NCBI GenBank assembly: GCA_000181795.3
Contig: CM012954.1
Span: 849,557-913,556, forward strand
DNA length: 64,000 nt
Direction: 5' to 3'
Source: Trichinella spiralis
Taxonomy: Eukaryota > Nematoda > Enoplea > Trichinellida > Trichinellidae
The notes beneath the pieces were generated by a model. That model saw only the letters and a list, made by a program, of their open reading frames with translations. It did no database searches and was not told where the DNA came from. The translations under genes and the position numbers were made by a program. Shown here piece by piece: positions 18,660-37,161 of the stretch (position 1 is its first letter; every line of letters begins with the position of its first letter).

Positions 18660-21600
18660 ATGGCCGGACGAATGCCAATTGGTGCTGGAGTTGTTGCGGA
18701 CCACCAGAAAGGTAGTGGTGGTTCATGGCATCAACATCAGCTGTCATATGCTTCTTCGTGCAATTCTACTACCCCATACGACTATTATCCTATGACTGAA
18801 GAGGAACGACGATGTCTAGAACAACGTTATTATTGGTGTTTTCTTCTGTCATCTATTGTCACGTTTTGCTTATCCATGTTGCTTGTGGTCACATGGCGCA
18901 TCCTGACTTATATCTGCTTTAGTACTTCTGCAGTTGATGAAGCTTATCGTGTCAAATATGATGCTCTGGCTGAACCTGAACCTCCTGGCAAAGATGCAAT
19001 TGTAAATGGCACAAGTCAAATAGATGCGATAAATGAAAAGTCATCTATGGTTGCGCAACCTGTGGTCGATCGAGCCGAAGGAAGTCAAGTTGGTTGGATG
19101 ACAGAAGCCAAAGACTGGGCTGGTGAGCTAATATCTGGGCAGAGTACCACAGGTCGAATACTGGTAATTGTAATATTTGTTTTTTTTTCATAAATAATTC
19201 TCAAAACATTTTTTCATAAAACGATCAAAATAGCTTTCTATAAGTAAAATTTAACTACGTAGAATAATATTTGAAATGCTATTTTTTAATTCAAATTATG
19301 AAATCACAATGCTATTAAATGAATTAATAGCTATTGACCAATTATTTAATTCGTTATCAACATGCGTTGCTTGCTGGCTGTGGGAAGTTAAAAGACCGAG
19401 CAGATAAATTGTACCAAATTGCAACGATACTGCTTTGCCTTCAAATGAATTCACGATCAATCAACGACAACTATACTATTTTTAAATATTGAATTATGTG
19501 CATTTATCGACTATTAAATTATTTTTATTAATTTAATATATCATTACAATTTTTCACAAAATGGTTCAGTTTTGTCTGATTCGTTACACTGTTCGTGATA
19601 GGGTAAAAATTTACACGCAATAAATTGACTTTTGAAATTTTCGAAAAACCTTTTTCTGTATTATTAAATTAATATATTTAATATAATTTAAAGTAATGCA
19701 AATAGCATTGTAAACATAATTTGCGGTTTATTCCCATTCTAAAGATATAGATCTGTTTTCATTATTATCTAAGTGAACTAATGTAAGTGCTAAAATACTG
19801 TCCATATTATTGTCCATACGTAAAGCTGTAAAGTTAGAAATTCTTTTACTGTGATTATCTGCAATAATTTTGTTTATAAAACTGAGTCTATCAACAATTT
19901 TCCCATTAAATAGCAATTATTAGTTTCAACTCTAAAAGCTGTAAAATATATTTCTGAACGATTTTGAAAATGACATTTTTCATATCCATTTAACTGCAGC
20001 ACGCAATCTCTGTATGTAGAAGGATATAATGCACCATAGAAAAATTGCATAAAATGGCTACATGCGATTAGTGTAATTGAAAAGTAATTTATAATTTAAA
20101 AACTACGTTGATATAGCAAGTAAATTTTCCAATTATTTTGATTACTTTTTAAAATGATCCTGCTGTATGCAGTTTAATAAATTAAAAATAATGATTTTGA
20201 ATAAAGAACGTTTTCCAATTTCATTTGCAATTTTGAAATTCCAATAGAAATAGTTCATAAATATAAAAAAAGTGTATTATGTAAAGGAGTTTCAATTTTG
20301 TTAATAAATAAGAAAATTAATGATTTAAAGCGTTTCAGAACTCTAAACAAGAATTTTGCAATGTTCAATTTTAAATAAGCTGAAAGAATTTTTTCATTCA
20401 GTTACAATTTTGCATTAATATATGCAGTCCTCTATCTCGTAGAATATCATGTTGCAATGATTGCGTATTTTGAACTGTTCTCGAAAATTTTTCATATATT
20501 CCAGTCATTGAATTTCAAATTAGTTATCTCTCTAAATATGATTTGAAATTTAATCGAATCATTATTGGATAAGTTCAAATTAAAGAAGCTACTCACTGTT
20601 TCATTTAGCTAGTGCTGAAAATGCATTCACTCTTATGCATATATAATAGGATGGTTTAAATTATCCAAATAAACTTAACATCGATCAGTTAGTCACAAAG
20701 GATTCTTTAGCTTCAATCACACTGTCCAGTAATAATAATAACAATAACAATTTTTTATTTTCAGGTAGTGCTCGTGTTTGTCCTCAGCATTGGCTCGCTC
20801 ATTATCTATTTTTATGATGCCTCACAGTAAGTTTCGATTTCAATTTGCATGTAAATATGCACGTCGTTCATATTGCCGATTGAGATTTCGTAAAATATAT
20901 TATTGCGCTCTTTGAAAAGATACTCGTGTTGCACTTTTTAATAGAAAATCTGAATGTTTATTGCTGTCAGACTACGCTTTAATGGCTTCCTGTGGGGTGT
21001 GTCAATGGATTTCATACAGACCGAATAGTAAAATAAGATCGATTAAAGCCAGTGGGTGGTGTTCAGCAAGAAGCATGCAGATGAAATTGAATTCTACATA
21101 ATCGGCTTTTCATGCTTTCGGCTAGGCATGAATTTTATTTGTTATTCAGAACTTAATTTTGATCATGCTTTCAAAAAGAACTCATTGAGAATAGCAGCTA
21201 TTTTCTGCAAGCGTAAATTTTCTTTTCACATTATTTAATTTAACGTTAAAATGTCCGTTTGCTTCAATAACTTCATTCTGCTTAAACTTTGATTACATCT
21301 AAACCTGTTACAGATTTGTTTATTGGACTTGAAATTTATTAGATATTGCCTACCAATTGTTTGCCATATGTCGTTCAAATGAATCTAACAATCTGAATAT
21401 TGTAATTTCATCTATATATGGAGTTTTAAATTTTATCGACAAGAGCATTCGTCTGATAAAATGAATATTTACAAAATGTTACTATTCATATTAATATTTG
21501 TTAAATTTCAAAATTTACATTAAACAAATTTATCAGTTAAAATAATTGCAATTAAAATTGTCGCATGCCTTATGAAATACAGTACGCTAATTAGCAGAAA

Positions 21601-35900: not shown

Positions 35901-37161
35901 TAGTAGAATGGGCAATTAGAAAAAAAACCTGAGAAGAAAACGAAACCTCAACTATATTCTCTGTCCTGATTGTTTGTTTATTACTTATTAATTTCTTTTA
36001 AAAATATTATTATTATTATTAAAATGTCCGCATTTTTCATTTGTATTCGACTGAACGTAGACAAGAAGCGTAGAAATGGTCAAATAATCATCATAATGCA
36101 AAGCGAGAAGAAGTTAATTTTGCGAAGAAATTTTGCTTGATTGGAAAAAGACACAAACCCTTTTGGATGATTAAAAATAGCAAAGAGCGAAACGAAATTC
36201 GCAAGCAGAAGTAGTTTGATACAAATTTGCAGCAAGTTTTATAAATTTAATTAGAAGAAGATAAAATCCATCAAGTGGTGAACACCAATACTGATGATGA
36301 TGATGATAAAAATAATAATAATAGTACTGTTAATGTTGCTGTTACTGTGCATAATCATAAGTTCAATGAGCCGAGAAAAATCTGAGGAGCACTGAGTGAG
36401 TGAAATGATGCTTGTTTGATAATGAGTATGCGCGGCAAAATTGGATTAGACTAAATACAAAGACAACTTCGCTTTGGGATGAGTATCTTCAATGGAACTT
36501 TAGTGAGAATATTAAAGTCGATGCAATTGAAAACGACAATGAAACAACAATGATTTTTTGTTTTTTTTGTCAAAATAAATTTCAGTTTCCCTAATTTGAA
36601 GAAAAAATAACTGTTATTTGTCTCTAAATCTCAAGTTTAGGTCGTATTCTTGTAAAAGTAAAAAATACCAAAGCATCTACTTACCAATATCCGTCCGGTG
36701 GTACTCTGGCCAGATATCAGTTCACCAGCCCAGTCTTTGGCTTCTGTCATCCAGCCGACGTGGCTTTCGTTGGTCGTGGACTGCTGTTGTTGGGATGAAG
36801 CCACCACGGACAGGGTGAGCTTTTCGTCCACATTCGCCGTCGACTGGCAAGAGTCGTGGAAGAATTTGTTGTCAGTGGTGCGTTTGTCATCGTCGACCGA
36901 GACTGCATCGTTCGGGTCGTCGAAACGGTCCCTGTCCTTGGGTCGAGAGCAGAACAAATGGCTCAAAATTCGGTAAGTGACCACGAGAAGCATTGACAAG
37001 CAGAACGTTATTATTGAAGAGAGCAAAAAGCACCAGTATTTCCTTTCGTCTAGACAACGGCGCTCTTCTTCGGTCATCGTCTCGAAACGGTACGGAGTTT
37101 GATTGCAATTCAACGGATACAGGCCAAGTCCGCCGCCGCCGCCCTTGTGAAATTCGCTCAT
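26919..37161 (-). CDS. slo-1: BK (Slo1) calcium- and voltage-gated potassium channel alpha subunit, copy B
   Basis: Exons in transcript order: 36685-37161, 33255-33316, 33097-33199, 32905-33016, 32669-32820, 32432-32602, 32274-32365, 32101-32211, 31918-32023, 31691-31843, 31465-31620, then 30894-31006 or 30740-30852, 30007-30165, 29866-29942, 29744-29794, 29558-29678, 29045-29149, 28653-28806, 28371-28595, 27816-28092, 27563-27693, 27287-27481, 27065-27226, 26919-26981. With one alternative exon and the 35-residue cassette the product is 1175 residues (1140 without the cassette). Features: N-terminal [28 protein letters not shown]0 block; S4 [19 protein letters not shown]; canonical filter [11 protein letters not shown] (about 331-341); RCK1 [12 protein letters not shown]; linker with basic RKKSF; calcium bowl [12 protein letters not shown] (about 999-1010); C-terminus [13 protein letters not shown]. 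The standard residues are kept, so this copy looks like the conserved channel. Intron 1 is 3.4 kb. Confidence 0.95.
29045..29149 (-). other. 35-codon exon in the RCK1-RCK2 linker of SLO-1 copy B
   Basis: A 105-bp exon with acceptor TTACTTCAG and donor GTAATTTT reads [16 protein letters not shown] near its end. Its phases match both flanking exons, and its length is a multiple of three, so it can be included or skipped. Nematode SLO-1 proteins carry a similar NTKSLRFAYE stretch at this place, so inclusion is probably usual. Copy A has no equivalent in its 200-bp intron at 24345-24544. Confidence 0.7.
30740..31006 (-). other. Pair of mutually exclusive exons in SLO-1 copy B
   Basis: Two exons of exactly 113 bp, 30894-31006 (reads [19 protein letters not shown]) and 30740-30852 (reads [19 protein letters not shown]), lie in tandem 41 bp apart. 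Each has its own acceptor and donor. Both enter in phase 0 and leave in phase 2, so either one joins correctly to the exon at 30007-30165. Including both would add 226 bp and break the frame. They encode the segment after RCK1 MRSFKT. The 41-bp gap is very short for an intron, which would also prevent splicing of one to the other. Copy A has a single exon here (23477-23589), closest to the first version. Confidence 0.88.
33317..36684 (-). other. Intron 1 of SLO-1 copy B with several simple repeats
   Basis: A large intron between the S0 exon and the S1 exon. It contains a (CAG)7 run at 34166-34186, a (CAAA)n run at about 34457-34483 and a long (TA)n tract at 35695-35733. Short ORFs here (for example the two at 34056-34283, minus) are translations of the repeats. 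No coding exon fits the flanking phases. Confidence 0.6.

What the first reader, a model, noticed from the sequence alone, without database searches (positions are those of the whole stretch)
18660..37161. Tail-to-tail pair of complete SLO-1/BK channel genes
Two full-length BK alpha-subunit genes converge with 420 bp between stop codons. They share all 22 basic intron positions and phases, and many exons have identical lengths, so they arose by inverted duplication of an intron-bearing gene, not by retroposition. Nematodes such as C. elegans have one slo-1 gene (established knowledge). A second intact copy would matter for BK physiology and for emodepside, which acts on SLO-1. Introns and flanks show no obvious similarity by eye, so the duplication is not recent.
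Basis: partly seen in the sequence, partly recalled or inferred. Interest (0 to 1): 0.85.

Follow-up and report, generated by a model that had tools for sequence, protein, structure and literature searches.

The report
Known tail-to-tail BK channel gene pair
This Trichinella roundworm has two intact, facing copies of the BK potassium-channel gene, a pair already published in 2014; the two proteins have been kept apart for over 200 million years, and one carries a fixed change at the inner mouth of the pore, next to where the worm drug emodepside binds in the fly channel.

Summary
Two full-length BK (Slo1) alpha-subunit genes converge with 420 bp between stop codons, share 22 introns in order and phase, and have 17 of 23 exons of equal length. 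They are the only Slo1 loci found in this 53 Mb genome.

The pair is not new. Kulke et al. 2014 (PMC4270693; passages and two sections read) found paralogues Slo-1.1 and Slo-1.2 in Trichuris muris, T. suis and Trichinella spiralis, and called those of T. muris and T. spiralis "juxtaposed in the genome in a tail-to-tail orientation". Copy B is Slo-1.1; copy A is Slo-1.2.

What I add: each paralogue forms one Trichinella-plus-Trichuris clade (99-100%), and a Romanomermis fragment sits with Slo-1.2 (89/93), so the duplication is probably older still. Slo-1.2 is the more changed copy. Its clearest change is serine to glycine just before the TVGYGD filter, seen in 10 of 184 retrieved proteins with the motif: nine Slo-1.2 entries and Romanomermis. 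The equivalent fly residue, S300, lines the verruculogen pocket, at the turn on which emodepside sits.

The parts
18660..26498 (+). Copy A: complete BK alpha-subunit gene, Slo-1.2 paralogue, 23 coding exons, 1150 aa
   Evidence: same letters as database T. spiralis Slo-1.2 (P0001) in the kept tree columns; groups with Trichuris Slo-1.2 (99%)
26919..37161 (-). Copy B: complete BK alpha-subunit gene, Slo-1.1 paralogue, 23 coding exons, 1140 aa
   Evidence: groups with Trichuris Slo-1.1 (100%)
26499..26918 (.). 420 bp between the two stop codons; AATAAA for A at 26534 (also at 26709); for B only variant signals, for example ATTAAA read on the - strand at 26729
22209..22379 (+). Exon 6 of A, with pore helix and filter TMGTVGYGD (glycine where all 13 Slo-1.1 rows and 34 of 35 other rows have serine; the 35th is Romanomermis)
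32432..32602 (-). Exon 6 of B, with filter TMSTVGYGD
25576..25706 (+). Exon 20 of A, calcium bowl [10 protein letters not shown]: the 5D positions stay acidic, the residue after the proline is N instead of D
27563..27693 (-). Exon 20 of B, calcium bowl [10 protein letters not shown]
30740..31006 (-). Exons 12a (31006-30894) and 12b (30852-30740) of B, both 113 nt, two versions of one exon; copy A has one version, and its introns 11 and 12 (61 and 71 bp) leave no room for a second
   Evidence: database models: P0047 and P0034 use 12b alone, T. suis P0038 a 12a-like exon alone, P0078 and P0080 12a followed by part of 12b
21931..21997 (+). A intron 4, GC-AG (donor GCAAGC); three database models instead use a GT 15 nt downstream and add KLFHR before S4
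26207..26438 (+). A intron 22, GC-AG (donor GCAAGT); the T. pseudospiralis model P0005 has the protein sequence of this junction

Best explanation
An ancestral slo-1 gene with its introns was duplicated, giving an inverted pair, in an ancestor of the Dorylaimia (clade I) nematodes, and both copies have been kept ever since. B (Slo-1.1) is the more conservative copy and has the alternative exon pair. A (Slo-1.2) is the more derived copy: it keeps the S4 arginines, the TVGYGD core and the calcium-bowl and RCK1 calcium-site residues that I checked, so it should still be a voltage- and calcium-gated K+ channel, but it has fixed changes at the inner mouth of the filter, beside the calcium bowl and elsewhere in RCK2. 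Most likely mechanism: two BK subunits with different gating and pore pharmacology that form homo- or heterotetramers. Shown here: both genes intact, their orthology, the fixed residues. Inferred: function, co-assembly, pharmacology.
For: Intact genes with the same 22 introns. Kulke et al. 2014 cloned full-length cDNAs of both T. muris paralogues and reported the tail-to-tail arrangement in T. muris and T. spiralis. Slo-1.1 and Slo-1.2 clades each hold Trichinella and Trichuris rows: 100% and 99% SH-aLRT, 100/99 for both in the smaller tree. Trichinella and T. suis split about 281 (384-204) Mya (PMC4740406, passages). Copy A is closer to T. suis Slo-1.2 than to B in 23 of 23 exons, and B closer to T. 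suis Slo-1.1 than to A in 22 of 23 (exon 5 is the exception), so no sign of wholesale gene conversion. 4-fold sites differ at 200 of 297 (67%) against 74% expected at saturation. At columns at least 97% conserved in all other rows, Slo-1.2 has 23 fixed differences and Slo-1.1 has 8. Both proteins keep [24 protein letters not shown] and the acidic bowl. Phmmer of a draft of B (first 673 residues) and of the C-terminal 360 residues of A against solved structures puts Drosophila Slo 7pxe first.
Against: No expression or current data for this species were seen. Kulke et al. saw no currents from TmuSlo-1.1a in oocytes, and report no expression of Slo-1.2 in the parts read. The clade of Slo-1.1 + Slo-1.2 + Romanomermis is weak (76/86), and a duplication at the base of all nematodes followed by loss is not rejected (p-AU 0.258). 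The difference counts rest on 7 and 13 rows, mostly near-identical Trichinella.
Confidence: 0.73

Rival explanations
1. Assembly artefact: uncollapsed haplotypes or a false inverted join.
For: None found; inverted repeats are a common assembly error (established knowledge).
Against: Copies differ at a third of coding bases. Database entries of both copies list a contig of the same length in several other Trichinella and Trichuris assemblies, and the 2014 paper reports the same arrangement. T. pseudospiralis entries do not show it.
Confidence: 0.01
2. Recent inverted duplication within Trichinella.
For: Identical intron phases and tail-to-tail layout.
Against: Each copy has its own Trichuris orthologue; 4-fold sites nearly saturated; non-coding sequence gives no match better than E = 0.004.
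Confidence: 0.01
3. Duplication in the ancestor of all nematodes, with one copy lost in Chromadorea, instead of a duplication within Dorylaimia.
For: p-AU 0.258 for Slo-1.1 + Chromadorea as one clade, so not rejected; the base of the nematode part is drawn open.
Against: Best tree joins Slo-1.1, Slo-1.2 and Romanomermis (76/86); Kulke et al. placed the two trichocephalid paralogues as sisters.
Confidence: 0.2
4. Copy A is decaying towards a pseudogene or a dominant-negative subunit.
For: Longer stem branch (0.39 against 0.27) and more changes at conserved sites.
Against: Frame intact over 1150 aa; A closer to T. suis Slo-1.2 in 23 of 23 exons; the filter glycine is in all 7 Slo-1.2 rows; Kulke et al. 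report little variation in Tsuslo-1.2 transcription, the full-length form being the major isoform.
Confidence: 0.05

Closest known systems
Slo-1.1 and Slo-1.2 of Trichinella spiralis, Trichuris muris and T. suis (Kulke et al. 2014, PMC4270693)
   Same: Same two genes; tail to tail in T. muris and T. spiralis by the paper's words; paralogues placed as sisters; alternative exons in Slo-1.1
   Different: Nothing in kind. Not found in the passages and sections read: the filter serine-to-glycine change and the residue after the calcium bowl ('selectivity filter' and 'pore' occur 0 times as word starts). Romanomermis is not in the species list of its tree legend.
Caenorhabditis elegans SLO-1 (P0086)
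   Same: Same family; filter TMSTVGYGD as in Slo-1.1
Drosophila Slo, PDB 7pxe (Raisch et al. 2021, PMC8660915)
   Same: Best solved-structure match; all 14 listed verruculogen-pocket residues found at the stated letters
   Different: S300 of the fly is glycine in copy A; at the other 13 of 14 positions Slo-1.1 and Slo-1.2 do not differ from each other, though both differ from the fly at 322, 328 and 332
Teleost slo1 paralogues
   Same: More than one BK alpha gene in a genome; Kulke et al. call teleosts the only known exception
   Different: Arose by whole-genome duplications according to that paper, not as a local inverted pair

Membership tests
BK / Slo1 alpha subunit | K+ filter TVGYGD within a voltage-gated pore domain, with S4 arginines | tested here: met
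   Both keep TVGYGD and LRFLRALRL; close database relatives carry PF00520, PF07885, PF03493. Pfam was not run on A or B whole; PF03493 matches both loci
BK / Slo1 alpha subunit | RCK1 calcium-site residues (D362/D367 and M513, human numbering) | tested here: met
   DFLHED and FSTMMANLF in A and B; role of the residues from PMC6763263, passages; that these letters are those residues is recalled
BK / Slo1 alpha subunit | Calcium bowl, five acidic residues D894-D898 (human) | tested here: met
   DDEDD in A and B; 5D definition. Individual ligands not tested
BK / Slo1 alpha subunit | Falls inside the Slo1 clade | tested here: inconclusive
   Both lie among nematode Slo1 rows rooted on arthropod Slo1, but no Slo2 or Slo3 row was in the tree. 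Bits against solved chains, C-terminal part of A: fly Slo1 481, Slo3 gating ring (4hpf) 234, KCNT1 at most 32
BK / Slo1 alpha subunit | Large-conductance current gated by voltage and calcium | not testable with these tools
   Needs electrophysiology
Trichocephalid Slo-1.1 / Slo-1.2 pair | Two Slo-1 genes, tail to tail, each orthologous to one Trichuris copy | tested here: met
   definition
Trichocephalid Slo-1.1 | Two versions of the alternative exon in Slo-1.1 | tested here: met
   Exons 12a and 12b, both 113 nt, in B; that this is Kulke's splice region 4 is inferred from its position after RSFKT

The most novel reading that the evidence does not exclude
Dorylaimian nematodes have run two BK alpha subunits for more than 200 million years, and Slo-1.2 is a distinct pore type defined by glycine in place of the near-universal serine at the inner mouth of the filter, fixed before Mermithida and Trichinellida parted. 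The two subunits would then differ in conduction, gating and response to pore ligands such as emodepside and verruculogen, and heterotetramers would carry a mixed pore mouth.
Probability: 0.35. Interest if true: 0.6.

Novelty: already known. Interest (0 to 1): 0.35.

Why it matters
Emodepside acts on SLO-1, and whipworms and Trichinella have two candidate targets instead of one. Kulke et al. could not tell which T. muris paralogue responds. The fixed difference at the pore mouth turns that open question into a specific, testable one. The pair is also a case of two BK alpha genes kept side by side for over 200 million years with no sign, at exon resolution, of gene conversion.

Tried and rejected
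Calcium-bowl loss in copy A: I first took the D-to-N change for a lost calcium ligand (note). The 5D stretch is D894-D898 in human Slo1 (PMC6763263); the changed residue aligns two places after it, so I dropped that claim.

KLFHR insertion before S4 in copy A: present in database models P0001, P0004 and P0031. A GC-AG reading removes it, restores the exon length of B (112 nt) and matches the Trichuris proteins P0007 and P0008; alternative use of the GT donor cannot be excluded without RNA.

Mutually exclusive use of exons 12a and 12b: suggested by their equal 113-nt length, but two T. spiralis database models (P0078, P0080) contain 12a followed by part of 12b, so it is not shown.

Overlapping 3' UTRs: candidate poly(A) signals allow either overlap or none; not claimed.

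Literature on the pair or the serine: searches. Searches found only Kulke et al.; one search found one review (PMC11732007), in whose main text 'paralog' occurs 0 times; others (S286, T287, BK channel; slo-1, Romanomermis) found 0 papers. This covers only the open-licence library.

Romanomermis Slo-1.1: not among the 120 rows listed of 516. Its one fragment (P0165) holds two versions of the S4 exon; I dropped the first version and the last residues. In the untrimmed alignment two more columns matched Slo-1.2, but they came from residues that I then cut, so I do not count them.

Structure prediction was not run.
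Full report
What is there. The window lies in a genome of 53,125,734 bases in 14 contigs. Copy A has the same letters as the database T. spiralis Slo-1.2 row in the columns kept for the tree (100% over 1102 columns), and BLASTP shows 0 mismatches over an alignment of 1177 positions with three gaps, so the animal is T. spiralis or extremely close. Copy B matches T. spiralis P0035 with 3 mismatches over 1197 positions and two gaps; against P0047 it has 19 mismatches, as expected from the other version of exon 12.

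The two genes. Where the T. suis guide split B's first exon and moved one junction, I kept the open reading and of database model P0047. A runs 18660-26498 (+), B 37161-26919 (-), each with 23 exons and a single stop. All 22 intron phases agree, 17 of 23 exon pairs have equal length, and 19 of 22 introns fall in the same alignment column; the remaining three are in gapped linkers. Stop to stop is 420 bp. I did not look for spliced leaders or 5' non-coding exons. Searches of the whole genome with a draft of B and the first half of A find these two loci and, elsewhere, only weak matches at 25-30% identity on contig 3 (best E 1.4e-4, 4.5e-4), probably other K+ channels.

It is already in print. 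Kulke et al. 2014 (PMC4270693; abstract and passages, section 18, part 1 of 2 of the discussion) found two paralogues in T. muris, T. suis and T. spiralis, named them Slo-1.1 and Slo-1.2, stated that in T. muris and T. spiralis they lie tail to tail, and placed them as sister groups. I assign B to Slo-1.1 because it groups with the truncated T. muris 'Slo-1' P0239 (the paper's truncated T. muris variants are of Slo-1.1, and that P0239 is one of them is inferred) and because it holds two versions of exon 12. A is then Slo-1.2.

Age. In a tree of 55 rows each paralogue forms one clade of Trichinella plus Trichuris (Slo-1.1 100%, Slo-1.2 99%), confirmed in a 23-row tree with bootstraps (100/99 for both). 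The duplication is thus older than the Trichinella-T. suis split, put at about 281 (384-204) Mya by PMC4740406 (passages). Synonymous 4-fold sites differ at 200 of 297 (67%) against 74% expected for random draws. A is nearer to T. suis Slo-1.2 than to B in 23 of 23 exons; B is nearer to T. suis Slo-1.1 than to A in 22 of 23. The exception is exon 5, where the T. suis row is divergent; Kulke et al. describe alternative exons near S4 in T. suis, which may explain it.

Romanomermis. A 472-residue fragment of Romanomermis culicivorax (P0165), trimmed, joins Slo-1.2 at 95% SH-aLRT and 89/93 (not starred). Forcing Slo-1.1 + Slo-1.2 into a clade without Romanomermis, or Romanomermis onto Slo-1.1, fits worse (p-AU 0.0336 and 0.0337; hypotheses chosen after the first tree, and the fragment fills only 31% of columns). 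Of the four Slo-1.2-diagnostic sites that the trimmed fragment covers it has the derived residue at two (fly positions 300 and 507) and the ancestral one at two (438, 568). It has neither of the two Slo-1.1-diagnostic residues that it covers (314, 573). The duplication therefore probably predates the Mermithida-Trichinellida split. Whether it is confined to Dorylaimia is open: the clade has 76/86 support, and Slo-1.1 with Chromadorea is not rejected (p-AU 0.258).

Division of change. Taking columns at least 97% conserved in all other rows, Slo-1.2 (7 rows) has 23 fixed differences and Slo-1.1 (13 rows) 8 (the untrimmed Romanomermis row counted among the others). Slo-1.2 changes include fly positions 300 (S to G), 507 (F to I), 811 (G to N), 988 (D to N), 998 (A to T), 1001 (T to K) and 1045/1046/1050. 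Slo-1.1 changes include 314 (G to A), between filter and S6. Stem branches are 0.39 and 0.27, 0.32 and 0.22.

The pore mouth. Fly position 300 was checked against the numbering of the solved fly channel: all 14 pocket residues named by Raisch et al. (PMC8660915; passages, section 8) fall on the stated letters. [quoted passage not shown] they do not name S300 as an emodepside contact in what I read. All 7 Slo-1.2 rows and Romanomermis have G; all 13 Slo-1.1 rows and all 34 other rows have S. Among all 257 retrieved proteins, 184 hold the motif: 172 S, 10 G, 1 A, 1 T; the 10 G are nine Slo-1.2 entries (six of them in the tree, three placed by their identity to A) and Romanomermis. The retrieved lists were capped at 120 rows per search and lean towards nematodes and arthropods. 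At the other 13 pocket positions the two paralogues do not differ.

Calcium sites. The D362, D367 and M513 equivalents and the five acidic bowl positions are kept in both copies (definitions from PMC6763263, passages). DDEDDPN occurs in 8 of 135 retrieved proteins with a readable bowl motif, all Slo-1.2. The N lies after the 5D stretch, so any effect on calcium sensing is conjecture.

Surroundings. Of ten flanking open frames scanned, five match a Pfam family over its cut-off: two thiolase exons, PA28, a protein kinase and an ERCC4 nuclease. Nothing in the flanks suggests that neighbours were duplicated with slo-1 (masked comparison).

Bottom line. A correct and careful observation of something published in 2014. 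The added value is the older date, the absence of visible conversion between copies, and a lineage-defining pore-mouth residue that predicts a difference between the two channels. Whether that difference matters for the drug is untested; T. [quoted passage not shown].

Noticed in passing
30740-30852 (-): Second version of exon 12 in copy B, 113 nt like the first, so plain inclusion of both would shift the frame; some database models nevertheless combine parts of both.
   Followed up: partly
21931-21997 and 26207-26438 (+): Two GC-AG introns in copy A, none in B; some database gene models read past them and gain KLFHR before S4 or an extra stretch near the C-terminus. Possibly alternative donors.
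   Followed up: partly
P0165 (Romanomermis culicivorax fragment): Two different versions of the S4 exon in one predicted protein, reminiscent of the alternative exons near S4 that Kulke et al. report for T. suis.
   Followed up: no
44262-45011 (-): One open frame holding both PA28 (proteasome activator) domains (Pfam PA28_C, E 2.5e-55).
   Followed up: no
3653-4917 (-), 50125-50505 (-), 57659-59137 (+): Thiolase, protein kinase and ERCC4-domain nuclease frames (Pfam): unrelated neighbours of the Slo-1 pair.
   Followed up: no
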